From NCBI RefSeq assembly GCF_021134715.1, contig NC_060018.1:4047501-4111500 (forward strand): a stretch of 64,000 nt of DNA, given 5' to 3'. Of the stretch, positions 1-40,000 are shown piece after piece (position 1 is the stretch's first letter; every line of letters begins with the position of its first letter). The stretch comes from Daphnia pulex. Its lineage: Eukaryota > Arthropoda > Branchiopoda > Diplostraca > Daphniidae. The position numbers and the translations under genes are program-made. The notes beneath the pieces were generated by a model that ran no database searches, was not told the origin of the DNA, and saw nothing but the letters and a program-made list of their open reading frames with translations.

Positions 1-854
1 CATTTTCATTGTTTATTTTACTTAAGTTCAACATCATTTTTATATGTTGAATATAAGTGACATACTGAACCACTTTTTCAGAATATTTGAAGTGGTTTTA
101 GCACACAAGAAAACTGATATCCAAATTAAAACAAAATTATTTTTTTAAAATAGTACCAAGCAATAGTGTTTACTAACTAATGGTTGGTACTGACTGCTGG
201 AGTTAAAGTTAATTGGCGACATCTCCAAGGTTTCACGTTTCATTCTTAAATAGTAGTTGTTGCCTGATTGGTAAGTTTAAATTAAATTAATTACAAGGCA
301 TGTCGATACCGAAAAGATCGCAACCTGGTCTCTGATGGCGCGCCAGTACGTTCCCTACCACACGTTCCTTTATTTGGTTACATTTGGGATTTTCACTAGC
401 CCGGTCGAATTTTAGCTGCATAACGATCAAGAAAGTCTAAAACCTAAATCCCAAACAACTTATCTTTTATCCTGTCTCTTGGATTGTGATTTTTTTCTGC
501 ATAAAAAGTCAACATAAAAAAAACAGTCTACCGGAATTTGAGCATTAATAAAGGTAAGAAGGTGTGCTGAAGTGTTTTGTTAATCATAGAGATTCTTTAG
601 ATTTGTCAGTCGATCTCGGATCTGGAACGGGTTTTTTTAAATTAAAGATTCTAACACAATTTTATTTTTTAAAATTAGTCGTTAAGCCCAGCCGGTTATA
701 ATCCTGAACAGTGAACATTTTATATTCACATTTCACACTTCACAGTCGAATTTGCCGCTTTGGCTTTTAGCAATTGCAGGGATGCCAGATGCGGACTTTT
801 AAATTGCAAAACTGAAAATATTGGCAATGTTGCGCCTTGCGCGTTACTTTCAAG

Positions 855-966
855 ATGGCTGCTTCAGTCTTACGCCAGCCTGTTCGGGTACTGCTACGAC
901 CTACGAGACATAATTCAACTCAACTTTCTCAACTTATTTTCCCTGGCATTATTCGCCATAAAAATG
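855..966 (+). CDS. Orphan first exon encoding a mitochondrial-type presequence
   Basis: The frame opens at ATG 855 (MAASVLRQPVRVLLRPTR..., then HNSTQLSQL...) and runs into a GT donor after 966 in phase 1. The predicted peptide of about 37 residues is rich in Arg, Ser, Leu and Ala, has no acidic residue, and has alternating Arg spacing, which is the classic amphipathic matrix-targeting pattern. I could not connect it by frame to any downstream exon in this arm, so the mature protein is unknown and the exon may be a remnant. An in-frame codon 18 bases upstream is a less likely start. A non-functional ORF remains possible. Confidence 0.4.
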
Positions 967-1266
967 GTAACTCCTTCTTGTATTCATTTAAAGCTATTAA
1001 ATGTAAATTTTTTGTCTGGTGCATAAACAGATAACAACATAGTCTGCAATTTATACTTGGCATTTGGCAATTTCATCTTATCATGTGGCCTGAAACTGCT
1101 GTTTCCCAAAATGTCGTCTCTAGCTGCACGTATCGGCTGTACGCTTCAGAACAGTAAATGTGATCATGTTTGTACATTTAGTTAGTTGATGAAATTGTTT
1201 CTGATAATAATTGTGTTTCTATTTTTCTATTAACAGCATGGTGAAGTTTGAGCTTCTTCATTGCAG

Positions 1267-1759
1267 TCCAAAGTGCTCATTGATTTGTTGAAGCCAGCTG
1301 GCCAAAGGTGTTGCGCTTACAGTCTTGCTACCTGTACCAGTTGGAGCTTTCGTCACACACTGAAACACTTCCAAACAATTTAAAGTAATTAGATTGATCA
1401 ACTTTTTTGCAGTAAGGCTAAACATTAAATTTGTTGATGACTAGCTCTTTGCTTTATATCTGTTGACTTTTCAGTTAAGACTGTTTTAAAAGCTTGTTAA
1501 CTGTGTATTCCTTTGTAGTGTTTGTAAAAGATTAGAGATTGCTTAGTTTAATTATGCTTCTGTTATTTTCTTATGTTGCACATGACTTTGTTTTCTTACA
1601 GTAATCGAGTTTTTTTTCCCCAAGTAGGATTAACAGTCGCTTGAAGTCTGAGCCTCTTTGTTGCAGTCCAATATGTACATGAATTTTGTGCAGCCAGTTG
1701 GAGAATGGTGTGGTGAGCCGTTGCATGCAGACTGGTGCTGGTGTCGTTCGTTCATTTAA
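1267..1759 (+). repeat. Two exon-like direct repeats exactly 400 bp apart
   Basis: Exon-like segments open at 1267 and 1667, each right after a pyrimidine-rich TTGCAG acceptor. They share TGAGC-TCTT-TTGCAGTCCAA upstream and a CAGCCAG-TGG-AA-GGTGT type core. In the same frame they read SKVLIDLLKPAGQRC... (stop at 1381) and SNMYMNFVQPVGEWC... (stop at 1757), giving a shared pattern of hydrophobics, K/Q-P-x-G-Q/E-x-C. Each is also preceded about 30 bases upstream by another ATTAACAG acceptor-like site. The second exon of the small peptide gene at 9002 has the same pattern. I cannot identify a functional full-length gene here. Confidence 0.55.
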
Positions 1760-2675
1760 CTATGGACCGTTCAGTCGTTCGTTTATCGTAAGAAATCTGT
1801 TTCCTTGTCGCGTAAAATCGTGTCCACCAGGTGGCGAAGTTAGTAGGTTAGCATTTCGTTATTGATGTCGAAGACCATTGTGACATCTTAATTTGGGCTT
1901 CTAACTAAGTGCTTTTGTGGAAAATACTTGTTAAGAGTTGTAAACTTTTGTTGATGGAACATACCAGAAATTCCTTTGCTTATTAAAAACTTGAAATGAT
2001 TTCTTTGATCATCTTATTGATTTCTTTTTCTCTAGTTTAGTGTACATTTCAAGTAAATCATTATTGGTATCTTTTTTCAAATTTGTTTTACTTCATTTAT
2101 GTTCTTTTGTTTTGTAGGTTTCCATGGTCAGTTTTATGTTTGAGCTGTTTGTGACGTCGCTGTTTGGGGTACAGTGGTTTTGCAGTCATTTTCTAGTTGA
2201 GAGATGCGCTGAAATGGAGCTTGTGCGGACTTGCAGTTGAACATCATACTTTAATGTGTTATTTGCCTATGTCGGTGTCCATGCAGTCTATGTAGTGTTG
2301 AACTGCTGTGGCAAAATAATCGATATTGCCTGATGGCTGTCGGGCTTATTTTATCGGCAGCATTTTGTTGATATGTTGTCTCTTGCTACCTATACGGCTG
2401 TACCGCCATTGAGGTAATGCTTGATGTACAGTCTCATTTAATTATGGACTTCAAGTTAATATCTCCGTTTTCATTTCAGTTGATTCGTTTGCCGCCGTTC
2501 CCTAGACTTTAAACACCGGAGGGTCATAAGCTGGAAGCCTTCTATGACACACTGCTCTCATAATAACTGCTCCTCGGCTCTCTTCGCTCTTTTTCCGGTT
2601 TCTCTTAACCATGGCCGGGTAATCTCCCTGGTCGAGTCAGTCGGGCAGTGTCTCCCCCTGCTTGACTGGCTGCTG

Positions 2676-2838
2676 TTTGTACTGGACGGTTTGTTTAATA
2701 AATAAAACAAGTATAAAAAACCATATAATGTTTTCATTTTATAAATTGTTATTAATTAATTAAATATAAATAGGTAACAACTTGATTAACAAGCATATTT
2801 ATGTAACGTTGTTTATTAAACAGACCGTCCGATACAAA
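2676..2838. repeat. Nested short inverted repeat with facing poly(A)-like signals
   Basis: Bases 2676-2703 and 2812-2838 are inverted copies of each other with only a few mismatches (core GGACGGTTTGTTTAATAAA), around about 108 bp of very AT-rich DNA with an ATTAATTAATTAAAT core. The plus side carries AATAAA and the other side its complement, so this could be two convergent transcript ends with homologous tails. A MITE-like remnant is the alternative; no target-site duplication was seen. Confidence 0.6.
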
Positions 2839-3369
2839 CTCTTAGTTAGTACTATTGCTCAAAAACTGATTCTCTTGAATCAGCAGACTCGAGTGTTTAT
2901 AGCGCCGCCAAGGTAGATATTTCTGAATGGTACCCGTCTTGTCAACTGCTAATGATTCGTGTTCTTGGTTTGACAGAAGCTGTGTTGTGTGTGTTGATCG
3001 TCTCCACCATGCACGCGATAATCAAGACCAGCAACGTCTTGATCAAGGAGAAGCAAAGAACGACGATGTAACTACTAAATAGCGGGGTGGGTACCGCTAA
3101 ATTCATTCTTAGTTGAATGTCGAATCGCTAATAGCATTGTTGGTTATGGTAGAACAGTTTTCCACACTGGTACGCTGTATGACGTCGAGCATTGCCAAAA
3201 TGGAAGTGATCTTTGAAGAACTGAGCGTCTTCAAAGCCAGCAATGTTTCTTTTTTAAAATTACTGTGGTAATAATTCAAGATGATGAAGTCTAATTAGGT
3301 AGAAAACCTTTCTGAAAAGTTTAGGAGCCATTGTTAATTTCAATTGGTGTAAAGTGAGTTTTAAGCCAT

Positions 3370-3815
3370 AATCATTTGGTATTAATTTTTATATGGGTTG
3401 TTGTAGACCCATTCCAATCCCCAGCAACGTAAACCTGCAGAAGGAAAGGCACGTAAAACTTGTCATGCAGTGGTGTAGAGGTTGGGTGAGAACGGGATGT
3501 AATACATAACCATTTGGTATTCATTTTGAATTTTGATATTGGTTGTTGTAGACCCACCCCCAGCAACGACAACCTGCAAAAGGAAAGGCACGTTAAACTT
3601 GTCAAAAAGAGGTTGGGTGAGAACGGGATGTCTTACTGTTACATAACCATTTTCATTTTGATATTGGTTGTTGTAGACCCATCCCCAGAAACTTCAACCT
3701 GCAAAAGGAAAAGGCAGTCCGCCTGTCCTTCACATTCGAAGGTCACGGAGATCATTGCATAAAACGTGTCATGCAGTGGTGTAGAGGTTGGGTGAGAACG
3801 GGACGTGTTTCATCA
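3370..3815 (+). repeat. Three-unit imperfect tandem repeat upstream of the tyrosine-rich gene
   Basis: Three units of roughly 125-145 bp. The segment GTTGTTGTAGACCC recurs at 3397, 3542 and 3667, and GTTGGGTGAGAACGGGA recurs near 3482, 3611 and 3787. CATTTGGTATT marks the starts of the first two units. The array ends about 60 bp before a TATA box. Its placement suggests duplicated upstream regulatory DNA. Short ORFs across it are by-products of the repeat. Confidence 0.85.
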
Positions 3816-3872
3816 TTTTCAAGCAGCTACAATAGCCGCAAGGCTTAAGAGGTGAGGGTGATCAAAAAATCG

Positions 3873-3908
3873 TATAAAAGGAGAGAGAAAAGGCGAAGGT
3901 AAATCAGT
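3873..3908 (+). promoter_or_regulatory. TATA box plus TCAGT initiator of tyrosine-rich gene copy 1
   Basis: TATAAAAG at 3873-3880 is followed 31-32 bases later by TCAGT at 3904-3908. This is the usual spacing of an arthropod TATA/initiator core promoter. A 5' UTR of about 60 bases then leads to ATG 3967. Confidence 0.75.
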
Positions 3909-3966
3909 CGAGGGAGCATCTCCGACACGGCAACAACTGCAGCGCTCTGTCTGTCAGTTCGCATCC

Positions 3967-4900
3967 ATGGGTAAATATTCTGTCTTTTACATAGAGTTTG
4001 GTATCAATCCTTCTTTTGATTATGTATGCCTGTTATTATGTAATATTTATGTTAAAATTTATAATTGTCTAGCAAACTATGGTGTAGTGCTGCTGTTGTG
4101 TGTTGAATCTTTGATGGCTGGGTCGACCACTGGTGTACCGATGTTTTCTTGGTATGGCGGATACCAAACCGCAACGCCGCCGCCTTACTACCCAAAAGCA
4201 ACTTACGCAACGACCAGTTACTGCACCGAGGTCTTCAAGTACTACACCACTAAAACACCGGACTTTAATAGCACAACTTACGCTGCCCCGAGCCACTACA
4301 CTGACGCCCTGAAGTATTAGTCTGCCCCGAGTTACTACACCACCAAGGCGACGGAGGATGACTACGCATGCTGCCCATCCTCCGAGGCTCATATACCGAG
4401 GCTCCTAAGTATTACTTTGTTCTCATCTACTTATTGCACCGATTTTCCTAAATACTACTCTGTTCCCAGCTGCTACACCGAGGCTCCCGCTGATTACTAC
4501 ACCGAAGCTTCAAAGTACTACTCTGCCCTGATCTACACAACCATAACTGAGGCGGCCAAGTATTACGCTGTCCCGACTTACTGCACAGAAGCTGTCGTTC
4601 GTACTACGTTGAACAGGAATACTACACTGATGCTCCAGTTCACTACACCACGACCTACGCTACATCGCAGCCCCCAAGTACTACACCGAAGAAGCCGCCT
4701 ACAACAACGTATGCTGCCTAGTTTACTACACCGAGGCTCCCAAGTACTACATCACTAAGGCACCGGAATTCTACACGTCGATACATGCTGCCCCTGCCTA
4801 CTACACCGAGGCCCCGCATTACTACAACACTGAAGCGCTCAAGTACTACACTACAACCTGCGCTTCCTCGAGCTTCTACACCTACGTCCCGAAGTATTAG
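3967..4900 (+). pseudogene. Tyrosine-rich repeat protein, copy 1 (premature stop)
   Basis: The first coding exon holds only ATGG (3967-3970). Intron 3971-4072 has GTAAAT/TAG borders, and exon 2 starts at 4073. The joined frame reads MANYGVVLLLCVESLMAGS..., a signal peptide, followed by a region built of KYYTT, YYTEA and KYYS-type motifs. TAG at 4318 replaces a Tyr codon of the repeat, leaving 83 residues. Beyond it the motif DNA continues in shifted frames to AAGTATTAG at 4898, probably the ancestral stop. An intact promoter suggests transcription may persist. Secreted Tyr-rich proteins of this kind could be extracellular-matrix or cuticle components; that role is inference. A truncated but functional peptide cannot be excluded. 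Confidence 0.7.
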
Positions 4901-4989
4901 TGCGTAAAAGGAGTCTTCAAAAAGAAAAGTGCCCGAACTGCAGTGCCTTATCTGTCACCAACTGCTTTCCTCGTAACCGATTCGCAATT

Positions 4990-5839
4990 ATGGGTAAATA
5001 TTCTTAGTTTTACATTGAGTTTTGTATCAATTATATTTTTTTCTGTTTGTTAATATGCCTGTTAATATTTAATTTTAATGTTTCAATTTATTTACTGTCT
5101 AGTCAACTATAGCGTCGTGCTCCTGTTGGGTGTTGTAGCTATCGTTGATGGCTGGGTCGACTGCTGGTGTAGCGATGTCTCCTTGGTATGGCGGAAACCA
5201 AACCGCAACGCCGCCGCCTTCCTACTCGACTTACGCAATGACCAGTTCCTGCACCGATGTCTTCAAGTACTACACCACCAAACCACGGGAGTTTTATACC
5301 ACAACTTACGCTGCCCCGAGCACTACACTGATGCCCTGAAGTATTACTCTGCCCTGAGTTACTACACCATCTAGGCGAGGGACGACACCACATGACTACG
5401 TATACTGCCTATCCTACTACACCGAGGCTTCTAGGTATTACTCTGTTCTCAGCTACTTATTGCACCGATTTTCCTAAATACTATTCTGTTCCCAGCTGCT
5501 ATACCGAGGCTCCCGCTGATGTCTCCATCAAGACGGTCGAATACTACACTGAAGCGACAAAGTACTACTCTGCCCCGATCTACACAACGACAACTGAGGC
5601 GGCCAAGTATTACACAGTCCCGACTTGCTACACCGAAGCTGCTCTTTCGTGCTGCGTCGAACAGAGATACTACACTGATGCTCCAGTCTACTACACCACG
5701 ACCTACGCTACACCTAGCTACAACACCGCAGACCCCAAGTACTACACCGAAGAAGGCGTCCATACACAACTACGTACGCTGCCTAGCTTACTACATCGAG
5801 GAATTTAAGTATTACTCCTCCAAACTGCTACCAAAATGA
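4990..5839 (+). pseudogene. Tyrosine-rich repeat protein, copy 2 (frameshifted)
   Basis: Tandem paralogue of copy 1 about 1.02 kb downstream. ATGG at 4990-4993, intron to 5102 ending TCTAG, exon 2 from 5103 (MVNYSVVLLLGVVAIVDG...). The signal-peptide frame then slips by one base against the GSTAGVAMSPWYGGNQT... frame. The left arm also lacks one C near 5316 that is present in the right arm. Tyr-rich YYTEA/KYYS/YYTTTYA motifs continue in several frames to 5839. The upstream element reads CGTAAAAGG rather than TATAAAAG, so its TATA box looks decayed. At least two lesions make this a clear pseudogene. Confidence 0.75.
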
Positions 5840-6685
5840 GGTTCATATGTATTACATCAGCAATTCTTCCCACCTTGTCACCACTATTTACGCTACTCCG
5901 AGCTATATACCGAAGTTCTAAAGTATTTTTTGGATTTGTTGAAAGATTATTGAAATACAAGATTGATTCATAAATCACAATTGCATGTCTATTTTCTCTT
6001 AAGTACGTTTCCTCCTGCTGATTGTTGCATGATGTGAGAAAATATTTTTGAGTGCTATGTAAACTTACAAATAATGATCTTGCAAAATACAACAATGAAA
6101 TTCAAACTCCTGTTTTACATTTCAAAATATTTTTTTCTATCATTAAAATTCGAAGACCAACAACACAATTATTTTTCTAAAAATTCAAAGACCATCTATT
6201 TTTCTGCTAAGTCCAGACTTTTGTTTTTGAAAAAAAAATTAAAAAAATCCCCCCTTACAAAGTTTTAAAAAAATTTTGCTAAAAAATTTGATACGAATTT
6301 TTATTGCATAAAAAATTTATTTTTATAATGAACACATACATTTATTTTTCCTGTGGCCCCCAGGGGGGGGGGGCCTGTCGCTTTCTCTACCGCGATAATA
6401 ACATGATGCAAGTTATATGCAAGTTATTATTTGTTTGGTGCAGAAAGCTTGTTTTATCTAGCAGTTCTCGACTGTTTCAAACCTGACATTGATCAGGTTG
6501 CCTCAGTCGTATACTGCATGATTGAATGAAAACTCAAGACAACAGATCAAACTTTTAACGCAGCAACACAAAATATTACTGGCAGAGCAATTTCGTATGG
6601 CATGGATGAAAACGACAACACAAAATTTTTGAAGTCAGGAACCCAGATGGAACAGCTCAGCTACAACAGCACAGCAACTTCTGGA

Positions 6686-7031
6686 TTACACTGCAATCGC
6701 ATTCAGCATACAACAGTTCAATCTGTCTTTGTCACACCTTTCACCATTTGGCTGCAACAAGGTAACCACCAGCATTTGTTTTACCTGTTTAAGAAAAGAA
6801 AATTATTTTCGAGAAACACAACTGTGTACACATTATAACAAAAGAATACAAAGAGTGACAGAAAACTACGCAGTCCAACAGAAAAACTTTGATATCCGAT
6901 TCAAAGCTTCTATAGTAAACTAAATCTGTAGTACTTCTGCAAGACATTTGATCAAAATAATTACTTTTTACTGTTGAATGGGGTGAGACGTAAGCCAAAG
7001 AACAGGCAGCGAGACACACGAGGCACGCCAT
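6686..7031 (-). CDS. Putative small secreted Cys-containing peptide (left-arm copy)
   Basis: Mirror of 8755-9100. Exon 1 is 7031-6972 and exon 2 is 6784-6686, with the same phase-0 splice and the same predicted 52 residues. One difference was seen, within the intron. It is transcribed away from the spacer, divergently from the right-arm copy. Confidence 0.4.
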
Positions 7032-7352
7032 TTCGGAAATGTACAGGGACTTCCCAAGTCTGAGGTGAATGATTTGGCAAATTGGTTTCTACATGCTAAA
7101 TCACCTATAAATTTTCACATCAACAATTCAACATATCACATTCAATAACAATAGGAAATTAACAATAAATACCTTTTAATTTTCATCGTGAGAAACGTCA
7201 CAACCAACGACCCATTTCTGCTGCGTCTTGGAACAAAATGGCCGCTAAGATTCTCTGAAGACACTCACGCTACCTGGTGGTTCAGCCACTTATTCACAGC
7301 CACCTATTGACAGCCATTAGACTCCTGTTCCAAATCACTGAACGCAACGGCT

Positions 7353-8419
7353 GGATTGCTTCCTTCGAGACAGCACGAAGCAGCTCAATTGAATTCGACA
7401 GGCCTTTCGGCTTTCACTAGCTGGCACGAAATGAATCAAATGAGCATGACCACCAATTACTCCAGCAGCTTTCCTTATGACACAAATACACAAAGTTTTT
7501 AGTTAGCTTTTCAAACTTTGTAACTCTTTCAACATAAAAATCTATAATATTAACAGAAAGTGTTGGGGGTCAAGACAAAAAATTAAACTTGCAATTTTCT
7601 GAAGAAAAGAATCATTTTCCTGCCGGTGGCTGAAAGGCAACAGCACCAGTTATCTGTGTTTTTAGAGTACGCACAGTGAGTTGAGTTCCAACTAACTTTG
7701 GCATCAAACAGTTAGTCATGTTGAATCTAAAGGAAATATGTCAATAAATATTCCAACATTCTTCAAATAAATTAAAGTTAATGGCTACCTGCTGCTCGTG
7801 TTTAACATTCAGAAAAATACAACACGTGTTGGTATGTGACCAGTGCCCTGCATTTGTTCACATTCTTCTCTTAAGCTGCTGCAATAAACCTGAAGATTAC
7901 CCATGGCCTAGATGATATGATATTTTTCATAGCTTTCCCTATGACAGAAAATAAAAATGACATCAAATAACAGTTTCAAACCGAAAGAAGAATAATACTT
8001 GTACGTCAATGAATTATTTGTTGAAAAGCATGTTCAGAAAAACAAACATGTCCACACTGGGGTAGTGACCCAGTAGTGACCTACTGAGTTTAAATCACAT
8101 CGCAAACAAGTTGCACAGAAAAGAACTTGAATTTACTGATGAATTCATCGGTAATTTTCATGGAAAAATAGGAAAACTTTTGACAACCACTGACACAACA
8201 ATCCGCCATCACATGAAAACGACGACGCCTATGTCATCTATTGGACACTTCTGACACCCCAAGTCCATAACGCAATTTACTTTGGTATGGCGACCGTACA
8301 ACTCAAAAGTCAAAAGACAGAAGAACTCCATCGACAATAGAACCACAAATATTTTAAATAATTTTTAAAATGTCTTTGTATGCGACAGTTGATTGAACTC
8401 AAACGACAGTAGAACTCAA
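7353..8419. other. Single-copy spacer (loop) between palindrome arms
   Basis: About 1067 bp without an inverted partner in the window and with no convincing open reading frame. It lies between the start codons of the two divergent copies of the small secreted-peptide gene (7031 minus, 8755 plus), so it may hold their 5' regulatory sequence. I see no transposase or other mobile-element gene in it. Confidence 0.8.
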
Positions 8420-8754
8420 AGCCGTTGCGCCTTGCGTTCAGTGATTTGGAACAGGAGTCTAATGGCTGTCAATAGGTGGCTGTGAATAAGTGGCTGAAAT
8501 GATGTCCACCAGGTAGCGTGAGTGTCTTCAGAGAAGCTTAGCGGCCATTTTGTTCCAAGACGCAGCAGAAATGGGTTGTTGGTTGTGACGTTTCTCACGA
8601 TGAAAATTAAAAGGTATTTAATTATTTATTGTTAATTTCCTATTGTTATTGAATGTGATATGTTGATGTGAAAATTTACAGGTGATTTAGCATGTAGAAA
8701 CCAATTTGCCAAATCATTCACCTCAGACTTGGGAAGTCCCTGTACATTTCCGAA

Positions 8755-9100
8755 ATGGCGTGCCTCGTGTGTCTCGCTGCCTGTTCTTTGGCTTACGTCT
8801 CACCCCATTCAACAGTAAAAAGTAATTATTTTGATCAAATGTCTTGCAAAAGTACTACAGATTTAGTTTACTATAGAAGCTTTGAATCGGATATCAAAGT
8901 TTTTCTGTTGGACTGCGTAGTTTTCTGTCACTCTTTGTATTCTTTTGTTATAATGTGTACACAGTTGTGTTTCTCGAAAATAATTTTCTTTTCTTAAACA
9001 GGTAAAACAAATGCTGGTGGTTACCTTGTTGCAGCCAAATGGTGAAAGGTGTGACAAAGACAGATTGAACTGTTGTATGCTGAATGCGATTGCAGTGTAA
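8755..9100 (+). CDS. Putative small secreted Cys-containing peptide (right-arm copy)
   Basis: Exon 1, 8755-8814 (20 codons), begins MACLVCLAACSLAYVS, a plausible signal peptide cut near residue 13. A GTAAAA donor and a TTCTTTTCTTAAACAG acceptor bound a 187 bp intron. Exon 2, 9002-9100, joins in phase 0 and stops at 9098. The total is 52 residues with Cys at 37, 44 and 45 in the mature part. Exon 2 contains LLQPNGERC, matching the pattern of the exon-like repeats at 1267 and 1667. AATAAA motifs occur near 9446 and 9463. No family was recognised and no function is assigned. The short length means chance ORFs remain possible. Confidence 0.4.
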
Positions 9101-9940
9101 TCCAGAAGTTGCTGTGCTGTTGTAGCTGAGCTGTTCCATCTGGGTTCCTGACTTCAAAAATTTTGTGTTGTCGTTTTCATCCATGCCATACGAAATTGCT
9201 CTGCCAGTAATATTTTGTGTTGCTGCGTTAAAAGTTTGATCTGTTGTCTTGAGTTTTCATTCAATCATGCAGTATACGACTGAGGCAACCTGATCAATGT
9301 CAGGTTTGAAACAGTCGAGAACTGCTAGATAAAACAAGCTTTCTGCACCAAACAAATAATAACTTGCATATAACTTGCATCATGTTATTATCGCGGTAGA
9401 GAAAGCGACAGGCCCCCCCCCCTGGGGGCCACAGGAAAAATAAATGTATGTGTTCATTATAAAAATAAATTTTTTATGCAATAAAAATTCGTATCAAATT
9501 TTTTAGCAAAATTTTTTTAAAACTTTGTAAGGGGGGATTTTTTTAATTTTTTTTTCAAAAACAAAAGTCTGGACTTAGCAGAAAAATAGATGGTCTTTGA
9601 ATTTTTAGAAAAATAATTGTGTTGTTGGTCTTCGAATTTTAATGATAGAAAATTTTGAAATGTAAAACAGGAGTTTGAATTTCATTGTTGTATTTTGCAA
9701 GATCATTATTTGTAAGTTTACATAGCACTCAAAAATATTTTCTCACATCATGCAACAATCAGCAGGAGGAAAGGTACTTAAGAGAAAATAGACATGCAAT
9801 TGTGATTTATGAATCAATCTTGTATTTCAATAATCTTTCAACAAATCCAAAAAATACTTTAGAACTTCGGTATATAGCTCGGAGTAGCGTAAATAGTGGT
9901 GACAAGGTGGGAAGAATTGCTGATGTAATACATATGAACC

Positions 9941-10791
9941 TCATTTTGGTAGCAGTTTGGAGGAGTAATACTTAAATTCCTCGATGTAGTAAGCTAGGCA
10001 GCGTACGTAGTTGTGTATGGACGCCTTCTTCGGTGTAGTACTTGGGGTCTGCGGTGTTGTAGCTAGGTGTAGCGTAGGTCGTGGTGTAGTAGACTGGAGC
10101 ATCAGTGTAGTATCTCTGTTCGACGCAGCACGAAAGAGCAGCTTTGGTGTAACAAGTCGGGACTGCGTAATACTTGGCCGCCTCAGTTGTGGTTGTGTAG
10201 ATCGGGGCAGAGTAGTACTTTGTCGCTTCAGTGTAGTATTCGACCGTCTTGATGGAGACATCAGCGGGAGCCTCGGTATAGCAGCTGGGAACAGAATAGT
10301 ATTTAGGAAAATCGGTGCAATAAGTAGCTGAGAACAGAGTAATACCTAGAAGCCTCGGTGTAGTAGGATAGGCAGTATACGTAGTCATGTGGTGTCGTCC
10401 CTCGCCTAGATGGTGTAGTAACTCAGGGCAGAGTAATACTTCAGGGCATCAGTGTAGTGGCTCGGGGCAGCGTAAGTTGTGGTATAAAACTCCCGTGGTT
10501 TGGTGGTGTAGTACTTGAAGACATCGGTGCAGGAACTGGTCATTGCGTAAGTCGAGTAGGAAGGCGGCGGCGTTGCGGTTTGGTTTCCGCCATACCAAGG
10601 AGACATCGCTACACCAGCAGTCGACCCAGCCATCAACGATAGCTACAACACCCAACAGGAGCACGACGCTATAGTTGACTAGACAGTAAATAAATTGAAA
10701 CATTAAAATTAAATATTAACAGGCATATTAACAAACAGAAAAAAATATAATTGATACAAAACTCAATGTAAAACTAAGAATATTTACCCAT
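9941..10791 (-). pseudogene. Tyrosine-rich repeat protein, copy 2 (right arm)
   Basis: Mirror of 4990-5839. The segment 10406-10636 stays in frame for longer than its left partner because the single-base deletion is absent here. The signal-peptide frameshift remains. Substitutions relative to the left arm (for example Ala for Thr, Lys for Glu and Val for Ala codons) cluster at about 10135-10240. Confidence 0.75.
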
Positions 10792-10880
10792 AATTGCGAA
10801 TCGGTTACGAGGAAAGCAGTTGGTGACAGATAAGGCACTGCAGTTCGGGCACTTTTCTTTTTGAAGACTCCTTTTACGCA

Positions 10881-11814
10881 CTAATACTTCGGGACGTAGG
10901 TGTAGAAGCTCGAGGAAGCGCAGGTTGTAGTGTAGTACTTGAGCGCTTCAGTGTTGTAGTAATGCGGGGCCTCGGTGTAGTAGGCAGGGGCAGCATGTAT
11001 AGACGTGTAGAATTCCGGTGCCTTAGTGATGTAGTACTTGGGAGCCTCGGTGTAGTAAACTAGGCAGCATACGTTGTTGTAGGCGGCTTCTTCGGTGTAG
11101 TACTTGGGGGCTGCGATGTAGCGTAGGTCGTGGTGTAGTGAACTGGAGCATCAGTGTAGTATTCCTGTTCAACGTAGTACGAAAGACAGCTTCTGTGCAG
11201 TAAGTCGGGACAGCGTAATACTTGGCCGCCTCAGTTATGGTTGTGTAGATCAGGGCAGAGTAGTACTTTGAAGCTTCGGTGTAGTAATCAGCGGGAGCCT
11301 CGGTGTAGCAGCTGGGAACAGAGTAGTATTTAGGAAAATCGGTGCAATAAGTAGATGAGAACAAAGTAATACTTAGGAGCCTCGGTATATGAGCCTCGGA
11401 GGATGGGCAGCATGCGTAGTCATCCTCCGTCGCCTTGGTGGTGTAGTAACTCGGGGCAGACTAATACTTCAGGGCGTCAGTGTAGTGGCTCGGGGCAGCG
11501 TAAGTTGTGCTATTAAAGTCCGGTGTTTTAGTGGTGTAGTACTTGAAGACCTCGGTGCAGTAACTGGTCGTTGCGTAAGTTGCTTTTGGGTAGTAAGGCG
11601 GCGGCGTTGCGGTTTGGTATCCGCCATACCAAGAAAACATCGGTACACCAGTGGTCGACCCAGCCATCAAAGATTCAACACACAACAGCAGCACTACACC
11701 ATAGTTTGCTAGACAATTATAAATTTTAACATAAATATTACATAATAACAGGCATACATAATCAAAAGAAGGATTGATACCAAACTCTATGTAAAAGACA
11801 GAATATTTACCCAT
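10881..11814 (-). pseudogene. Tyrosine-rich repeat protein, copy 1 (right arm)
   Basis: Mirror of 3967-4900 on the minus strand: ATGG at 11814-11811, exon 2 from 11708, the same premature TAG at 11463-11461. A Val/Phe substitution in the downstream shifted frame is the main difference seen. Because the stop is shared by both arms, it either predates the inversion or was spread by gene conversion. Confidence 0.7.
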
Positions 11815-11872
11815 GGATGCGAACTGACAGACAGAGCGCTGCAGTTGTTGCCGTGTCGGAGATGCTCCCTCG

Positions 11873-11908
11873 ACTGATTTACCTTCGCCTTTTCTCTCTC
11901 CTTTTATA
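11873..11908 (-). promoter_or_regulatory. Mirror TATA plus initiator of copy 1 (right arm)
   Basis: Inverted identical copy of 3873-3908. The core promoter is intact in both arms. Confidence 0.75.
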
Positions 11909-11965
11909 CGATTTTTTGATCACCCTCACCTCTTAAGCCTTGCGGCTATTGTAGCTGCTTGAAAA

Positions 11966-12411
11966 TGATGAAACACGTCCCGTTCTCACCCAACCTCTAC
12001 ACCACTGCATGACACGTTTTATGCAATGATCTCCGTGACCTTCGAATGTGAAGGACAGGCGGACTGCCTTTTCCTTTTGCAGGTTGAAGTTTCTGGGGAT
12101 GGGTCTACAACAACCAATATCAAAATGAAAATGGTTATGTAACAGTAAGACATCCCGTTCTCACCCAACCTCTTTTTGACAAGTTTAACGTGCCTTTCCT
12201 TTTGCAGGTTGTCGTTGCTGGGGGTGGGTCTACAACAACCAATATCAAAATTCAAAATGAATACCAAATGGTTATGTATTACATCCCGTTCTCACCCAAC
12301 CTCTACACCACTGCATGACAAGTTTTACGTGCCTTTCCTTCTGCAGGTTTACGTTGCTGGGGATTGGAATGGGTCTACAACAACCCATATAAAAATTAAT
12401 ACCAAATGATT
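11966..12411 (-). repeat. Mirror copy of the three-unit tandem repeat
   Basis: Right-arm inverted counterpart of 3370-3815, with the same three units. Confidence 0.85.
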
Positions 12412-12942
12412 ATGGCTTAAAACTCACTTTACACCAATTGAAATTAACAATGGCTCCTAAACTTTTCAGAAAGGTTTTCTACCTAATTAGACTTCATCAT
12501 CTTGAATTATTACCACAGTAATTTTAAAAAAGAAACATTGCTGGCTTTGAAGACGCTCAGTTCTTCAAAGATCACTTCCATTTTGGCAATGCTCGACGTC
12601 ATACAGCGTACCAGTGTGGAAAACTGTTCTACCATAACCAACAATGCTATTAGCGATTCGACATTCAACTAAGAATGAATTTAGCGGTACCCACCCCGCT
12701 ATTTAGTAGTTACATCGTCGTTCTTTGCTTCTCCTTGATCAAGACGTTGCTGGTCTTGATTATCGCGTGCATGGTGGAGACGATCAACACACACAACACA
12801 GCTTCTGTCAAACCAAGAACACGAATCATTAGCAGTTGACAAGACGGGTACCATTCAGAAATATCTACCTTGGCGGCGCTATAAACACTCGAGTCTGCTG
12901 ATTCAAGAGAATCAGTTTTTGAGCAATAGTACTAACTAAGAG

Positions 12943-13105
12943 TTTGTATCGGACGGTCTGTTTAATAAACAACGTTACATAAATATGCTTGTTAATCAAG
13001 TTGTTACCTATTTATATTTAATTAATTAATAACAATTTATAAAATGAAAACATTATATGGTTTTTTATACTTGTTTTATTTATTAAACAAACCGTCCAGT
13101 ACAAA
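12943..13105. repeat. Mirror copy of the nested short inverted repeat
   Basis: Right-arm counterpart of 2676-2838, so the palindrome contains this smaller palindrome twice. Confidence 0.6.
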
Positions 13106-14021
13106 CAGCAGCCAGTCAAGCAGGGGGAGACACTGCCCGACTGACTCGACCAGGGAGATTACCCGGCCATGGTTAAGAGAAACCGGAAAAAGAGCGAAGA
13201 GAGCCGAGGAGCAGTTATTATGAGAGCAGTGTGTCATAGAAGGCTTCCAGCTTATGACCCTCCGGTGTTTAAAGTCTAGGGAACGGCGGCAAACGAATCA
13301 ACTGAAATGAAAACGGAGATATTAACTTGAAGTCCATAATTAAATGAGACTGTACATCAAGCATTACCTCAATGGCGGTACAGCCGTATAGGTAGCAAGA
13401 GACAACATATCAACAAAATGCTGCCGATAAAATAAGCCCGACAGCCATCAGGCAATATCGATTATTTTGCCACAGCAGTTCAACACTACATAGACTGCAT
13501 GGACACCGACATAGGCAAATAACACATTAAAGTATGATGTTCAACTGCAAGTCCGCACAAGCTCCATTTCAGCGCATCTCTCAACTAGAAAATGACTGCA
13601 AAACCACTGTACCCCAAACAGCGACGTCACAAACAGCTCAAACATAAAACTGACCATGGAAACCTACAAAACAAAAGAACATAAATGAAGTAAAACAAAT
13701 TTGAAAAAAGATACCAATAATGATTTACTTGAAATGTACACTAAACTAGAGAAAAAGAAATCAATAAGATGATCAAAGAAATCATTTCAAGTTTTTAATA
13801 AGCAAAGGAATTTCTGGTATGTTCCATCAACAAAAGTTTACAACTCTTAACAAGTATTTTCCACAAAAGCACTTAGTTAGAAGCCCAAATTAAGATGTCA
13901 CAATGGTCTTCGACATCAATAACGAAATGCTAACCTACTAACTTCGCCACCTGGTGGACACGATTTTACGCGACAAGGAAACAGATTTCTTACGATAAAC
14001 GAACGACTGAACGGTCCATAG

Positions 14022-14514
14022 TTAAATGAACGAACGACACCAGCACCAGTCTGCATGCAACGGCTCACCACACCATTCTCCAACTGGCTGCACAAAATTC
14101 ATGTACATATTGGACTGCAACAAAGAGGCTCAGACTTCAAGCGACTGTTAATCCTACTTGGGGAAAAAAAACTCGATTACTGTAAGAAAACAAAGTCATG
14201 TGCAACATAAGAAAATAACAGAAGCATAATTAAACTAAGCAATCTCTAATCTTTTACAAACACTACAAAGGAATACACAGTTAACAAGCTTTTAAAACAG
14301 TCTTAACTGAAAAGTCAACAGATATAAAGCAAAGAGCTAGTCATCAACAAATTTAATGTTTAGCCTTACTGCAAAAAAGTTGATCAATCTAATTACTTTA
14401 AATTGTTTGGAAGTGTTTCAGTGTGTGACGAAAGCTCCAACTGGTACAGGTAGCAAGACTGTAAGCGCAACACCTTTGGCCAGCTGGCTTCAACAAATCA
14501 ATGAGCACTTTGGA
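14022..14514 (-). repeat. Mirror copy of the two exon-like repeats
   Basis: Inverted right-arm counterpart of 1267-1759. The same two units read on the minus strand. Confidence 0.55.
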
Positions 14515-14814
14515 CTGCAATGAAGAAGCTCAAACTTCACCATGCTGTTAATAGAAAAATAGAAACACAATTATTATCAGAAACAATTTCATCAACTAAC
14601 TAAATGTACAAACATGATCACATTTACTGTTCTGAAGCGTACAGCCGATACGTGCAGCTAGAGACGACATTTTGGGAAACAGCAGTTTCAGGCCACATGA
14701 TAAGATGAAATTGCCAAATGCCAAGTATAAATTGCAGACTATGTTGTTATCTGTTTATGCACCAGACAAAAAATTTACATTTAATAGCTTTAAATGAATA
14801 CAAGAAGGAGTTAC

Positions 14815-14926
14815 CATTTTTATGGCGAATAATGCCAGGGAAAATAAGTTGAGAAAGTTGAGTTGAATTATGTCTCGTAGGTCGTAGCAGTACCCGAACA
14901 GGCTGGCGTAAGACTGAAGCAGCCAT
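14815..14926 (-). CDS. Mirror copy of the presequence exon (right arm)
   Basis: Inverted copy of 855-966 with the same reading frame and donor site. The predicted peptide is unchanged between the arms. Confidence 0.4.
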
Positions 14927-15780
14927 CTTGAAAGTAACGCGCAAGGCGCAACATTGCCAATATTTTCAGTTTTGCAATTTAAAAGTCCGCATCTGGCATC
15001 CCTGCAATTGCTAAAAGCCAAAGCGGCAAATTCGACTGTGAAGTGTGAAATGTGAATATAAAATGTTCACTGTTCAGGATTATAACCGGCTGGGCTTAAC
15101 GACTAATTTTAAAAAATAAAATTGTGTTAGAATCTTTAATTTAAAAAAACCCGTTCCAGATCCGAGATCGACTGACAAATCTAAAGAATCTCTATGATTA
15201 ACAAAACACTTCAGCACACCTTCTTACCTTTATTAATGCTCAAATTCCGGTAGACTGTTTTTTTTATGTTGACTTTTTATGCAGAAAAAAATCACAATCC
15301 AAGAGACAGGATAAAAGATAAGTTGTTTGGGATTTAGGTTTTAGACTTTCTTGATCGTTATGCAGCTAAAATTCGACCGGGCTAGTGAAAATCCCAAATG
15401 TAACCAAATAAAGGAACGTGTGGTAGGGAACGTACTGGCGCGCCATCAGAGACCAGGTTGCGATCTTTTCGGTATCGACATGCCTTGTAATTAATTTAAT
15501 TTAAACTTACCAATCAGGCAACAACTACTATTTAAGAATGAAACGTGAAACCTTGGAGATGTCGCCAATTAACTTTAACTCCAGCAGTCAGTACCAACCA
15601 TTAGTTAGTAAACACTATTGCTTGGTACTATTTTAAAAAAATAATTTTGTTTTAATTTGGATATCAGTTTTCTTGTGTGCTAAAACCACTTCAAATATTC
15701 TGAAAAAGTGGTTCAGTATGTCACTTATATTCAACATATAAAAATGATGTTGAACTTAAGTAAAATAAACAATGAAAATG

Positions 15781-16688
15781 TGTAAGTAAAATGGGACACC
15801 ACTGGACAAAATTTAAACTAAATGATAAACCACTTGATTTATCTTACAACTACATACACTATTACCATTTCAGATTTCCTGTTTTCATCTCATTCTCGTC
15901 GTCAATGTAGCTGTAGTAGAAACCCTGTCAACATCGAGGCATTTTCATGATACGGCAACGATTACGTGGAGACAGGCAGTAAAGTTAACTTTCTTAAGTC
16001 TTAACTTGAAGCTTGTTAAATCTGATTAATCCAATCAGAAATTCCGATGCAATACACTTGTAATTCGATAAAGAATGGAAAACTAACCAGAAAATCCAAC
16101 AACAATGTCTGCCATGTGTCGTAGTCGTGCTCGAGCTCGACTGCTCGTGCTTAGGAATCGCATCAACTGTTCAACGCATCACCTGGCGGACAAACTTTAT
16201 CCCAAACACGATTTAAATCATTTAATCAATTAGCGTTTTCAATTATACGCAATTCGTTAGTATAGCAAAGCTATCATTCACAAATATTGTGAGATGAAAT
16301 ATCTATTAAATCGAATGGAAATTATAAATATTTTACAAATATCAAAATCAGAGCTATCAGCTATTACTAGAAATGGTGTCCACGTTGCACTTTGTTTTTC
16401 GCTTAAATGTTTGATGTAGAAAACTACTAGAAATATTTATAATACCATAAAAACCATGTAAAATTCCTATTCCTATGGATGTAAACGACGGAATCATCAT
16501 TCGTGTGTAATTTACAGAATAAACGTCTAAAAGGACGTTGAATGGATCCGTTCTACGTTCTTATATCAGTAGAACCAACCAACGCTGTCCGCTGAGAGTT
16601 GCAGCTAGACGATATCGTTATCCAGTGCCAATCTCATTTACTTACCTATTAAAAATTAAAGTATTAAAATTGTTTTTTTGGCGCGCAG
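15781..16688. other. Sequence just outside the palindrome; no gene seen
   Basis: Single-copy AT-rich DNA. No open frame with convincing signals, no RNA gene and no terminal repeat was seen. The first bases continue a sequence whose palindromic partner would lie left of the window. Confidence 0.6.
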
Positions 16689-17017
16689 TTCATCAAAAAT
16701 TTGAAGCCATCTGGGGAGGGCTATCAATACCAAAGCCGACGTCATGTATTGGGAGAAAACAGCAATTCCTTCCGTAATGACACCAAAAAATAAGTCTGAA
16801 AAAGTTATAAATCCTCTACGGAAGAATACGGGAACACCAAATGCTAAAGAGAAACTAAAATAACGTGAACATTGTTGTTGGTATTATTTTTTGTATCATG
16901 TGTTATCTGTTGAAATTGCAGGAAATTTTCTCACGATCCCGCGAGACAAGACGTGAACAAAAGAATTCTTTCAATTTGAAGTCGACAAAAATCGAAGTAA
17001 ATCGAGTTCCATATTAG
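16689..17017 (+). CDS. Possible short coding exons with a D-box-like motif
   Basis: After a GCGCGCAG acceptor the frame from 16689 reads FIKNLKPSGEGYQYQSRR, then HVLGENSNSF..., and stops at 16791. It contains RHVLGENSN, an exact match to the APC/C destruction-box consensus RxxLxxxxN. One base fewer in the A6 run before that stop would join it to the frame MTPKNKSEKVINPLRK... ending at 16861. A second candidate exon (16922-17017) follows a TTGAAATTGCAG acceptor and reads EIFSRSRETRREQ... to TAG. No start exon was found. These could be the 3' exons or a remnant of a cell-cycle type protein, or chance. Confidence 0.25.
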
Positions 17018-36944: not shown

Positions 36945-37000
36945 ATTCTCCGTGACCGATTAAATAACCAACAGAAGCAGAAAGAAGAAGAATCGTGAAA

Positions 37001-40000
37001 ATGGCGCCATTTTCAAATTGCCAAAGGAGTGCCGCCGTTGGGTTAGTCCTGTTGGCCTCGTTCTTCTTTTCCGTCTGCTGGACGTCGGCAGCGGCCGTCG
37101 ACGGCCAGAGGACATGGCGGAGGCGGCACAATGGCGATCTTCATCAGCACAATGGAGCAGCGGCGGCGACGGACGGCCTTGGTGCCGTGAGTGGACGGCA
37201 GAGAAGAGCCGAGTGGACGTGCCCGCAGGTGAGCGATTCGTCTCGTTCGCCCGGCATCTCGTGCCAATGCGATTTGCCGCACACGCTCCGCTGCTCGGGC
37301 GCTGCCGGGCAGAGCGAGTCGGAGAATCAGGTCTCGTTCATCATCGGGGCTCTGAGGGTCTTGCCGCTCGAGCAGTCCGTCTCCCTGCTGGACCTGTCCA
37401 TCCAGAATTTCAGCCGCCTCAGTCCGTACCTGTTCGAGCGGGTCACGCTCCACGGACTGGTCATATCGTCGGGTGAGATCCAGGACGTGTCGCAGCAGGC
37501 CTTTGCCGGCCTGGCCCAGTCGCTGACGGCCCTGGGTCTGCCCAACAATCGATTGGTCAGCGTTCCGTCGGAAGCGCTCGGCTCGCTCGTCCATCTCGAG
37601 CGACTGGACCTGTCCAACAACCGCATCCAATCCATCAGCGGCCAGCCGTTCGCCGGACTCGACCGGCTCCGGTTCCTCGACCTCAGCGGCAACGCCCTGG
37701 AGACCATCGCCCCGCAAGTCTTTGCCGCCCCTTCCGGCCTGCGGAGTCTCCAGCTGCGCTCCAATCTCCTGGAAGCCTCTCAACTGGTTCCGCCAGCCCT
37801 GGGCGGCCTGGTCAAACTGCAGGAACTCGATCTCGGCTACAACCGACTGCGCGGCCGGCTGACCAGCACTTTCCTCCAAGGTCTGGACAATCTCCTGACG
37901 CTGGAACTGACGGGCAACAACTTGACGCTGCTCAAACGCGGCATGCTCAGCGGACTGAAGCGGCTCCGCACTCTGCGGCTGGCCCGCAACCAGGTAAAAC
38001 CCCAAAATAACAAATAAAATAAAATAAAGAAAAAGGATGACGCAAAACGTGTGATGGATGTTATGGCGTCATCACTTTGACATCTATCTTGCATATCCAT
38101 TTTTAAACATGTATCGATCTCTCTTTTATCTTTTGCTGCTGCCCCCATTCTGGGCCATCAGATCGATGTGATTGAAGATCAATCTTTCCTCTCGCTGGCC
38201 GCGCTGACGTCGCTGGACTTGAGCCACAACGGAGTCGTCGCTATTTCCGGACAGTCCCTCTCTCATCTCAACGAGTACGTATCATCTTATTCATCGCTGT
38301 CATAGATAACTTGTGATTTGTCATCCGTCTATATAAACTGCTGCAGCAGTTCTCAGCTAAAGATATAACTCGATACATTATTTCCAGCATGACGTAAACA
38401 GACACGGAAATAGAATTATCTCGTGGATATTTTAAGGATCTATGACGAAAGGCGGAAGGATTTCACGGATGAAAGTTGATTCTTATATCTTATATATTTT
38501 CTATTTGGGATCAAAACAAAAGTTTGACTCAGTTGGATCTGAGCCACAACTACTTACGAGCGGTGACGTCGGACCTGGTCGACGGATTGCCCAGCCTCGA
38601 GTCGCTCGACCTCACCGATAACGACATCTCCCTGGTCGAGTCCGGAGCGCTAACCAACCTGCCAAAGCTCATCCATCTGTCACTCACTGGTAAGTCTATC
38701 GCCAACTTGCTAGCTATAGTATATTCCGCCGCATTCTCACCTCATCCCATCCATCCGGACGGCTGGGAGTTGGTAGAAGACATTCGTCGGCTGTCATTTT
38801 CATCGGCTGGGCTGACGTCAATCATAAACATTTCAAATAAAGGGAATAGCATATATATATCCCAGCAAGCAACTTTCTCTCTCCCAACTCGGCCCTTGTT
38901 TTTGTGTGGAGGCCGGAAGGATTCTCTCTCGCTTGCTGGGCATCAGGATCTGTTTTCCCAACGGTGTAGTGGTGGTTCGCCCCCCTTTTCTTTTCTTATT
39001 TTTTATTTTGTGCCAGGCCTCGTTTCCATCATGCAAAAGCGGCAGATGTGTCAAAACACATTCCCATCTCTTTCGGGCTAGTTCTCTCTCTGCTGTCTAA
39101 ACAGATGCAGTTCAGCAATCCAGCGGCGGCGGGCTCCTGAATCAAGCCGCTGAAAGCTCCTTATAATAATACTACACACATCTTTTTAAAAGCTGGAAAT
39201 GAAGACGGGAGCTCAGAGCACAGCTCCGATTTGAGACTGGCCAAAGCCACATTTTCAATTGAGGAATAAGAATAAGAAGGGGGGCCAGGCTTATAGATTC
39301 TCTTTCTCATCATCGCTCCGCTGGCTTCCCATCTCCGCTGGACACCTACTATACACACAGGAATCAATGGGTCTTTGCTCTTTTCACAGCTCTCACCTTT
39401 CTTTTTAACCCTGGCTGGACGACAGGGGGAAAGTAGAAAGGGAAACTGTCAATTTCATCCGCCCCGTCAGACAATTCGATTGTGCCGAAAACGATTTCAT
39501 CAAAATGGGCAAAAGGCTTTTATGTTCTGTACATCCACCACCCAGTTTCCCATTTAAAATTCTCAAAGAACCGGAAGAAAGGGACCTCACCTTTTTTCAT
39601 TCCTTTTGTTGGAATTCAATCGCGTAGTACAAACTGCATTCGCGTATATTGATCATATCATCGAGAGAATGCGAAAAAACTGGGAAGCCCAGACGAGTTC
39701 ATCGAATGGGCCGATTTATAATAAAAGAGCAGCGATTTCTTCTTTCTTTTTCCCCCCACCGGGCACGAAAAAGTACAATGTGTTGACGGGGAAATATTTT
39801 CCAGAGATTTTGCCCGAGAGAATTCCGTCAAATTTTCTTCTATTCATTTGTATTTTATTTTTGGGCGCGTGACGAATTTTGATTTTAAACAAATCGAATC
39901 CGAACAGTGGCGGAATAAGTGCACCGGTCGTCAACTTTTTTGTCCGCGCTCTTCCTTGTAGAGTTTTTTATTGGATGTTCTTTTGTCGAGCTGTCCGGCG

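What the first reader, a model, noticed from the sequence alone, without database searches (positions are those of the whole stretch)
1..15780. Giant near-identical palindrome (arms of at least 7.35 kb, 1.07 kb spacer)
Every feature of 1-7352 recurs inverted in 8420-15780 with well over 99 percent identity, and the outer end lies beyond the window. Palindromes of this size are normally unstable or are maintained by arm-to-arm gene conversion, as on sex chromosomes. Alternatives are a fold-back assembly artefact, or two haplotypes joined tail to tail at a contig end. The scattered indels and substitutions argue against a trivial read fold-back of one molecule but fit haplotype joining.
Basis: partly seen in the sequence, partly recalled or inferred. 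Interest (0 to 1): 0.7.

Follow-up and report, generated by a model that had tools for sequence, protein, structure and literature searches.

The report
Dispersed family of self-correcting DNA palindromes
The giant mirror-image stretch is real in the assembly and is one of a few dozen related palindromes scattered over most chromosomes of this small-genome animal (probably the water flea Daphnia pulex), whose two halves keep copying their sequence onto each other even though the genes they carry look dead.

Summary
The palindrome is confirmed and closed: arms at window -977..7347 and 8432..16765 (8,325 and 8,334 bp, 99.4% identical) around a 1,084-bp spacer, 4.05 Mb inside a 13.35-Mb contig, so it is not a contig-end fold-back. 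It is not alone. A search with a fragment of the arms' Tyr-rich sequence gave 72 loci on 11 contigs; 28 of 72 are convergent inverted pairs, against 0 pairs among 34 and 16 long hits of two control transposons. I read 15 inverted loci in whole or part.

Arm-spacer junctions are shared between loci on several chromosomes, so the palindrome predates its dispersal. Yet the arms are sisters in 11 of 14 loci, and in those 11 both arms share 121 substitutions seen in no other sampled locus, against 8 private to one arm. Two loci show sharp edges between identical and diverged arm sequence. This means arm-to-arm copying (gene conversion or break-induced copying). The Tyr-rich sequence is frame-shifted in 13 of 13 loci, so selection on that protein is an unlikely cause. 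Such palindromes are known from mammalian sex chromosomes and C. elegans; a dispersed family carrying dead genes looks like a new variant. No reads or second assembly were available.

The parts
1..7347 (+). left arm (8,325 bp in all; the outer 978 bp lie left of the window, C2:4046523-4047500)
   Evidence: self-BLAST
7348..8070 (+). spacer segment S1, shared in whole or part by other loci; 90.1-100% identical (median 94.4%, 55 pairs) between the 11 loci compared
8091..8431 (+). spacer segment S2, shared in whole or part by other loci; part of it lies inside both arms at C12:9.82 Mb and C2:1.22 Mb
8432..16765 (-). right arm (8,334 bp), reverse complement of the left arm at 99.4%
3862..4900 (+). 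left arm, first Tyr-rich (YYTEAPKYY-type) sequence, with an in-frame stop and frame shifts: apparent pseudogene
   Evidence: ORFs
4981..5808 (+). left arm, second Tyr-rich sequence, about 80% like the first, frame-shifted
9972..10800 (-). right-arm copy of the second Tyr-rich sequence
10881..11919 (-). right-arm copy of the first Tyr-rich sequence
1..4596 (+). window part of the difference-free stretch of the arms (5,470 bp from -873 to 4597): candidate recent conversion tract
4597..7280 (+). inner part of the left arm holding 17 of the 19 arm-to-arm differences

Best explanation
The feature is a genuine chromosomal palindrome and one member of a dispersed family. Inferred: an ancestral unit, with two tandem Tyr-rich sequences per arm pointing towards a roughly 1-kb spacer, arose by inverted duplication and was then copied to dozens of sites on at least 11 chromosome-sized contigs by segmental duplication. 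Shown from sequence: spacer and central junctions are shared between several loci, while within most loci read the arms are nearly identical and carry locus-specific mutations in both arms. So sequence is repeatedly copied from one arm to the other after dispersal. Most likely this is non-crossover gene conversion between arms that pair by folding or between sister chromatids; break-induced re-copying of an arm is an alternative of the same class. The copying runs over stretches of hundreds of bases to kilobases, seems weaker at the ends of the arms, and does not depend on a working Tyr-rich gene. I think the palindromes are a by-product of this repair geometry and have no protein-level function.
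For: (1) Family: a Tyr-rich fragment search listed 150 of 156 matches, falling in 72 loci on 11 contigs; 28 of 72 are inverted, 28 of 28 convergent, 23 with an exactly tied score. Controls: 0 inverted pairs within 15 kb among the 34 and 16 long hits of two transposons; among the shorter hits not counted, one tied inverted pair of 167-bp pieces lies 13 kb apart on C10. (2) Ten loci chosen because they showed inverted pairs all proved large palindromes, main arm matches 97.4-100%; another (L008, C5:9.29 Mb) has 4.75-kb arms at 98.8%. (3) Common descent: one S2/right-arm junction is shared by C2, C3 and C12 loci, a second by three C5 loci, C1 and C12. (4) Homogenisation: in the inner 1 kb the arms of one locus are 99.0-100% identical in 11 of 14 loci, and for these 11 the best match to another locus is 93.9-98.4%. 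Arms are sisters in the same 11 of 14. The tree grouping arms by side of the spacer is rejected, p-AU 4.4e-50, 8 loci. (5) Sites private to a locus and shared by both its arms: 128 over 14 loci; in the 11 homogenised loci 121 against 8 private to one arm, in the other three 7 against 87. Mismatched arm pairs with both loci set aside average 0.40, maximum 9, over 182 pairs. (6) Tract edges: L008 arms are identical over about 954 columns, then 87%; L003 arms identical over 400, then windows of 87-97%; L004 and L007 unhomogenised at 93.0 and 89.5%. (7) In the window the arms are identical over 5.47 kb. Pooled over 9 of 10 loci examined, differences lie nearer arm ends than at random (0 of 20,000 shuffles; C2:3.81 Mb left out of the test, C12:8.65 Mb not examined). 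(8) The frame-shifted Tyr-rich motif is present in 13 of 13 loci, 44 copies.
Against: No reads and no second Daphnia assembly, so everything rests on one assembly. S1 of L003, L007 and L008 is 99.0-99.4% identical between these loci although same-side arms of L007 and L008 match only 80-98% by window, so exchange between loci also happens and the spacer is not a clean clock. Some palindromes (C10, C5:8.05, C2:3.81, C1:5.23) lack most of the shared spacer, so independent re-formation there is not excluded. One-sided outer homology with variable truncation could also come from re-copying an arm outward from the axis. Arm ends were set by BLAST, which by itself enriches differences at ends. The window locus itself has only 3 private shared sites against 2 in one arm. 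GC content gives no sign of GC-biased conversion.
Confidence: 0.85

Rival explanations
1. Independent, recent inverted duplications: each locus began as one arm plus spacer and was doubled lately, so the arms are alike because they are young.
For: Outer homology to the family often continues on one side only, as if one side were native and the other a truncated copy. 44 of 72 loci have hits on one strand only (partners may have been missed because only 150 of 1,775 candidates were scored).
Against: The S2/right-arm junction is the same, apart from a short variable stretch, in loci on different chromosomes. Unhomogenised (L007, L004) and half-homogenised (L003, L008) palindromes with a shared centre exist, the latter with sharp edges between identical and diverged stretches. 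In C2:3.81 Mb the outermost ~365 bp hold at least 60 of 91 arm differences.
Confidence: 0.08
2. Assembly artefact: fold-back or joined haplotypes.
For: Palindromes are classic misassembly sites; PMC7953838 (passages) warns that erroneous scaffolding makes artificial palindromes. Derived differences in the window lie more often in the left arm (about 12 to 3), which could mean uneven consensus quality.
Against: Inside a 13.35-Mb contig; 28 inverted loci of one family, all convergent, none for long hits of control repeats; single-arm transposon insertions; private substitutions shared by both arms.
Confidence: 0.04
3. A foldback-type or terminal-inverted-repeat transposon whose long TIRs are the arms.
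For: Dispersed on 11 contigs, inverted structure, spacer as internal part.
Against: Outer ends differ from locus to locus and homology runs past the palindrome edge on one side. The five arm reading frames scanned had no Pfam hit. Target-site duplications were not tested.
Confidence: 0.06
4. Hairpin-RNA loci: read-through transcripts of the inverted dead gene copies fold into long dsRNA and make siRNAs against working Tyr-rich genes; arm identity is selected.
For: Convergent Tyr-rich copies in all 28 inverted loci; candidate open members elsewhere, e.g. C7:8546989 in a 451-aa open frame without stop.
Against: No transcript or small-RNA data. The inner arm, where no Pfam hit or long frame was found, is homogenised too. 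Conversion explains arm identity without selection.
Confidence: 0.07

Closest known systems
Long inverted repeats of paralogous gene pairs in Caenorhabditis (Zhao et al. 2007, PMC1803023; abstract, Discussion and part 1 of 2 of Results read)
   Same: Inverted duplicates in an invertebrate, arms alike within a lineage but not between lineages, ancient structure, lost in some species, divergent pairs that duplicate as a unit
   Different: There a few gene pairs compared between species; here a dispersed family of at least 28 inverted loci in one genome with frame-shifted Tyr-rich sequences and visible tract edges
Mammalian sex-chromosome palindromes (Rozen et al. 2003, recalled and cited in papers seen; Jackson et al. 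2021, PMC8981503, abstract start and passages seen)
   Same: Arm identity above 99%, unique spacer, conversion as cause, spacers in which sequence has become arm sequence in other copies
   Different: On many chromosome-sized contigs, many related copies, arms of about 4-9 kb, no GC-bias signal found, no intact Tyr-rich gene seen in the loci read
Palindromes of Adineta vaga and Folsomia candida (PMC5490193 and PMC7953838, passages seen)
   Same: Inverted duplications in animals with parthenogenesis
   Different: Those are gene-block palindromes; in F. candida a wide Ks range argued against concerted evolution. PMC7953838 states that D. pulex was not screened because no annotation was available
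Foldback/TIR DNA transposons (general knowledge; PMC2884549 on D. pulex DNA transposons, passages seen)
   Same: Dispersed, inverted arms
   Different: No common outer ends seen, no transposase domain in the arm frames scanned

Membership tests
Palindrome maintained by arm-to-arm gene conversion | two long inverted arms, near-identical, around a unique spacer | tested here: met
Palindrome maintained by arm-to-arm gene conversion | structure older than the arm divergence suggests | tested here: met
   shared junctions and spacer between loci; tested between paralogous loci of one genome, not between species
Palindrome maintained by arm-to-arm gene conversion | new mutations present in both arms; tract edges | tested here: met
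   family level; for the window locus alone the evidence is the 5.47-kb identical stretch and 3 private shared sites
Palindrome maintained by arm-to-arm gene conversion | GC-biased replacement in arms | tested here: inconclusive
   inner-arm GC 0.36-0.40 with no trend by homogenisation; substitutions not polarised for GC
Mammalian-type sex-chromosome palindrome | location on a non-recombining sex chromosome, intact testis genes | tested here: not met
   family on 11 contigs; frame-shifted Tyr-rich motif in 13 of 13 loci; expression not testable
Caenorhabditis-type inverted paralogous gene pairs | inverted paralogous genes with arms alike within a lineage and diverged between lineages | tested here: inconclusive
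   arm pattern met between paralogous loci; genes look pseudogenic; no second species
Foldback/TIR transposon | fixed outer termini | tested here: not met
   outer ends vary, homology passes the edge on one side
Foldback/TIR transposon | target-site duplications | not tested
   no common terminus to anchor the test
Contig-end fold-back artefact | contig end on one side, arms derived from one sequence | tested here: not met
   single-arm insertions in two related loci
Hairpin-RNA locus | transcription and phased siRNAs | not testable with these tools
   no RNA data

The most novel reading that the evidence does not exclude
A dispersed, self-homogenising palindrome system: dozens of palindromes of one ancestry, carrying dead gene copies that point to the axis, are kept symmetrical because the symmetry itself is used. 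They would be hairpin-RNA loci whose double-stranded transcripts silence the living Tyr-rich gene family, with arm-to-arm conversion preserving perfect base pairing.
Probability: 0.08. Interest if true: 0.85.

Novelty: new variant of a known kind. Interest (0 to 1): 0.6.

Why it matters
Arm-to-arm conversion is usually argued from a few sex-chromosome palindromes compared between species. Here one genome offers dozens of related inverted loci, several with the same centre, from unhomogenised (89.5%) to identical, two with visible tract edges. Conversion rate, tract length, edge effects and palindrome decay could be measured away from sex chromosomes and with little sign of selection on the Tyr-rich protein. 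If the animal is Daphnia pulex (cyclical parthenogen with mutation-accumulation lines), the role of meiosis in conversion becomes testable by comparing sexual and clonal lines.

Tried and rejected
Contig-end artefact: rejected. TIR-transposon reading, first suggested by the dispersed hits of the palindrome centre: not kept, because the homology covers multi-kb arms and outer ends vary. Import of the left-arm differences from another locus by ectopic conversion: in the part of the alignments that was shown most left-arm states are private, so not supported. GC-bias: no sign. Rfam and tRNA scans of the window: nothing. Two transposon control queries: no inverted pair among the long hits; one short tied inverted pair on C10 among the hits not counted. 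The first mismatched-arm control (mean 0.011) counts the partner arms among the others and is near zero by construction; it was replaced by the fairer one (mean 0.40, maximum 9 for the closely related C2:1.22 and C10 loci). In some searches I used part of the listed rows: 40 of 48, 41 of 58, 34 of 197 and 16 of 87 matches, leaving out low-scoring or short pieces. Paper searches touching palindromes or ectopic conversion, in Daphnia or in general, listed no title or abstract on this family; only an open-licence library was searched. A Tyr-rich gene family search of papers found nothing relevant. The apparent 245-column run of L007 comes from a truncated row, not a tract.
Full report
OBSERVATION. 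The window is C2:4047501-4111500 of a 133,188,837-bp genome in 13 contigs. C13 carries the best COX1 match, with 9 TGA codons inside, as expected of a mitochondrial contig, leaving 12 others. D. pulex is given as 133.2 Mb (passage of PMC12926508), so the genome is probably D. pulex (inference). Self-comparison finds the inverted repeat. With 40 kb of upstream sequence it closes at -977..7347 and 8432..16765, 99.41% identical, around a 1,084-bp spacer. The flanks beyond show no inverted match within the 104 kb read. The 19 differences (12 substitutions, 7 indels) are clustered: 2 near the outer end, none over 5.47 kb, 17 in the inner 2.75 kb.

WHAT THE ARMS CARRY. Each arm holds two tandem sequences coding in pieces for Tyr-rich repeats (YYTEAPKYYTT type), pointing to the axis. 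The frames are broken by a stop and frame shifts. A frame-shifted motif with a YYTEAPKYY-like reading in another frame occurs in all 13 loci examined, 44 copies, so the damage predates dispersal if the repeat frame is ancestral (inference; no intact parent was read). Other family members in the genome do lie in open frames without stops. The five arm reading frames scanned had no Pfam hit at E 0.1.

A FAMILY. The centre of the palindrome matched dozens of places on C2, C3, C4, C5 and C12 (C1 and C11 also). The second Tyr-rich sequence gave 40 main hits, 30 of them in 15 inverted pairs, 10 pairs with equal score; the first gave 41 main hits, 24 of them in 12 inverted pairs, 9 equal. The outer arm (window 1-2400) gave further inverted pairs on C1, C2, C8 and C10 beside many single hits (read by eye). 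A 174-aa open frame from a related locus gave 156 matches, of which the 150 listed fall in 72 loci on 11 contigs: 28 loci inverted, all 28 convergent, 23 with an exactly tied pair. These are lower bounds because only 150 of 1,775 candidates were scored. Two transposons found inserted in single arms served as controls: 34 and 16 long hits, 0 inverted pairs within 15 kb. Among the short hits not counted, one tied inverted pair of 167-bp pieces lies 13 kb apart at C10:6.86-6.88 Mb.

Ten loci were fetched because they showed inverted pairs, so their being inverted is by choice. That arms of several kb are 97.4-100% alike is a result. L008 has 4.75-kb arms at 98.8%. With the window and the partly read L003, L004 and L007 this makes 15 inverted loci seen as sequence. 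Spacers range from nearly none to about 1 kb. In C12:9.82 and C12:8.65 Mb a transposon sits in one arm only and has no match in the other.

COMMON CENTRE. S1 and/or S2 of the window's spacer recur in many of the other loci to varying extent; C5:8.05, C2:3.81 and C1:5.23 Mb have lost them at the centre. The junction of S2 with the right arm is the same in the window, C3:9.73 and C12:8.65 Mb apart from a short variable stretch; L002, also in that alignment, does not show it. A second form, with part of S2 lost, is shared by C5:9.10, 9.29 and 10.04 Mb, C1:4.95 and C12:9.40 Mb. C12:9.82 and C2:1.22 Mb share yet another centre in which part of S2 has become arm sequence; PMC8981503 describes spacer sequence corresponding to arm sequence between primates (passage). 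So these loci descend from palindromes, not from separate duplications, where the centre is kept.

ARM-TO-ARM COPYING. In 1 kb of inner arm (773 columns for C12:8.65 Mb), arms of one locus are 99.0-100% identical in 11 of 14 loci; the other three are 95.1, 93.0 and 89.5% (L003, L004, L007). For the 11 the best match to another locus is 93.9-98.4%. In the tree of 33 rows the two arms are sisters in those 11. Holding arms together by side of the spacer is rejected (p-AU 4.4e-50, 8 loci, one set of identical rows left free). Over the 14 loci, 128 sites have a base present in both arms of one locus and in no other sampled locus. For the 11 homogenised loci it is 121 such sites against 8 private to one arm; for the three others 7 against 87. 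Mismatched arm pairs, both their loci set aside, average 0.40 such sites, with up to 9 for closely related loci. L008 and L003 show abrupt changes from identical arms to 87-97% identity, and C12:8.65 Mb changes from 100% over 1,916 bp to 96.7% over 389 bp across the single-arm insertion. These are the marks of conversion tracts. Differences pile up at arm ends in the pooled test, with the caveat that BLAST-set ends exaggerate this.

RESULTS AGAINST A SIMPLE STORY. S1 of L003, L007 and L008 is 99.0-99.4% identical between loci although same-side arms of L007 and L008 match only 80-98% by window, so exchange between loci also occurs. Outer family homology often continues on one side of a palindrome only, which fits loss of one outer arm but also re-copying of an arm from the axis with variable ends. 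Derived states in the window arms lie mostly in the left arm, about 12 to 3, two ambiguous, two not polarised; this is unexplained and could be a consensus-quality effect. GC content shows no trend. How common long inverted repeats are in the rest of this genome is not known beyond the 104 kb read.

COMPARISON. The process matches what is inferred for mammalian sex-chromosome palindromes (PMC8981503, abstract start and passages) and for inverted gene pairs in Caenorhabditis (PMC1803023; abstract, Discussion and part 1 of Results). It differs in being a dispersed family on most chromosome-sized contigs with broken Tyr-rich sequences. The survey of parthenogenetic animals (PMC7953838, passages) states that D. 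pulex was among the species without the annotation needed to screen for palindromes; in F. candida (PMC5490193, passages) a wide Ks range argued against concerted evolution. My paper searches listed no title or abstract describing this family; they cover open-licence papers only.

VERDICT. A real, ordered structure in this assembly, explained with good confidence as a member of an old, dispersed palindrome family homogenised by arm-to-arm copying. The mode of dispersal and any use of the symmetry are unknown. A hairpin-RNA role is possible but untested.

Noticed in passing
L014:1968-4717 (left arm of the C12:9.82 Mb palindrome): About 2.7-kb insertion in one arm only, with a 123-bp perfect inverted repeat near its ends; 28 full-length copies in the genome, 27 at 99-100% identity, several close to contig ends: a young DNA-transposon-like element.
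   Followed up: partly
L028:8099-9929 (left arm of the C12:8.65 Mb palindrome): 1.8-kb insertion in one arm only; 11 full-length copies at 97-100% with a self-inverted first ~290 bases.
   Followed up: partly
C10:6863565-6863731 (+) and C10:6876711-6876877 (-): Tied inverted pair of short matches to the 1.8-kb element, 13 kb apart: perhaps another inverted duplication, unrelated to this family.
   Followed up: no
L005 and L006 (C5:10.86 and C5:11.00 Mb): Two family loci about 143 kb apart in opposite orientation with identical S1 and 98.9% inner arm: a recent inverted segmental duplication.
   Followed up: no
L024/L025, C1:5.23 Mb: Tandem expansion of a short repeat in the Tyr-rich sequence, of different length in the two arms (open frames of 225 and 276 aa).
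   Followed up: no
C7:8546989-8547324 and C7:10783459-10783860: Unpaired Tyr-rich family members in open frames of 451 and 360 aa without stops: candidate living genes of the family.
   Followed up: no
C4 and C5 family loci: On C4 only 3 of 21 family loci show both strands, against 7 of 18 on C5: loss or absence of the second arm may differ by chromosome, or weaker partners were not listed.
   Followed up: no
window 4597-7280 against 8499-11184: Derived states among the arm differences lie mostly in the left arm (about 12 to 3) and mostly look private to the window locus in the part of the alignment shown.
   Followed up: partly
window 36968-43810 (+): Leucine-rich-repeat gene (LRR_8 E 1.4e-36 in the first large frame); that the frame at 42302-43810 belongs to it is a guess.
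   Followed up: no
window 49660-53365 (+): Tetratricopeptide-repeat gene over three neighbouring frames, the third with only a weak match; possibly a SKI3/TTC37-like protein (TPR; the name is recalled).
   Followed up: no
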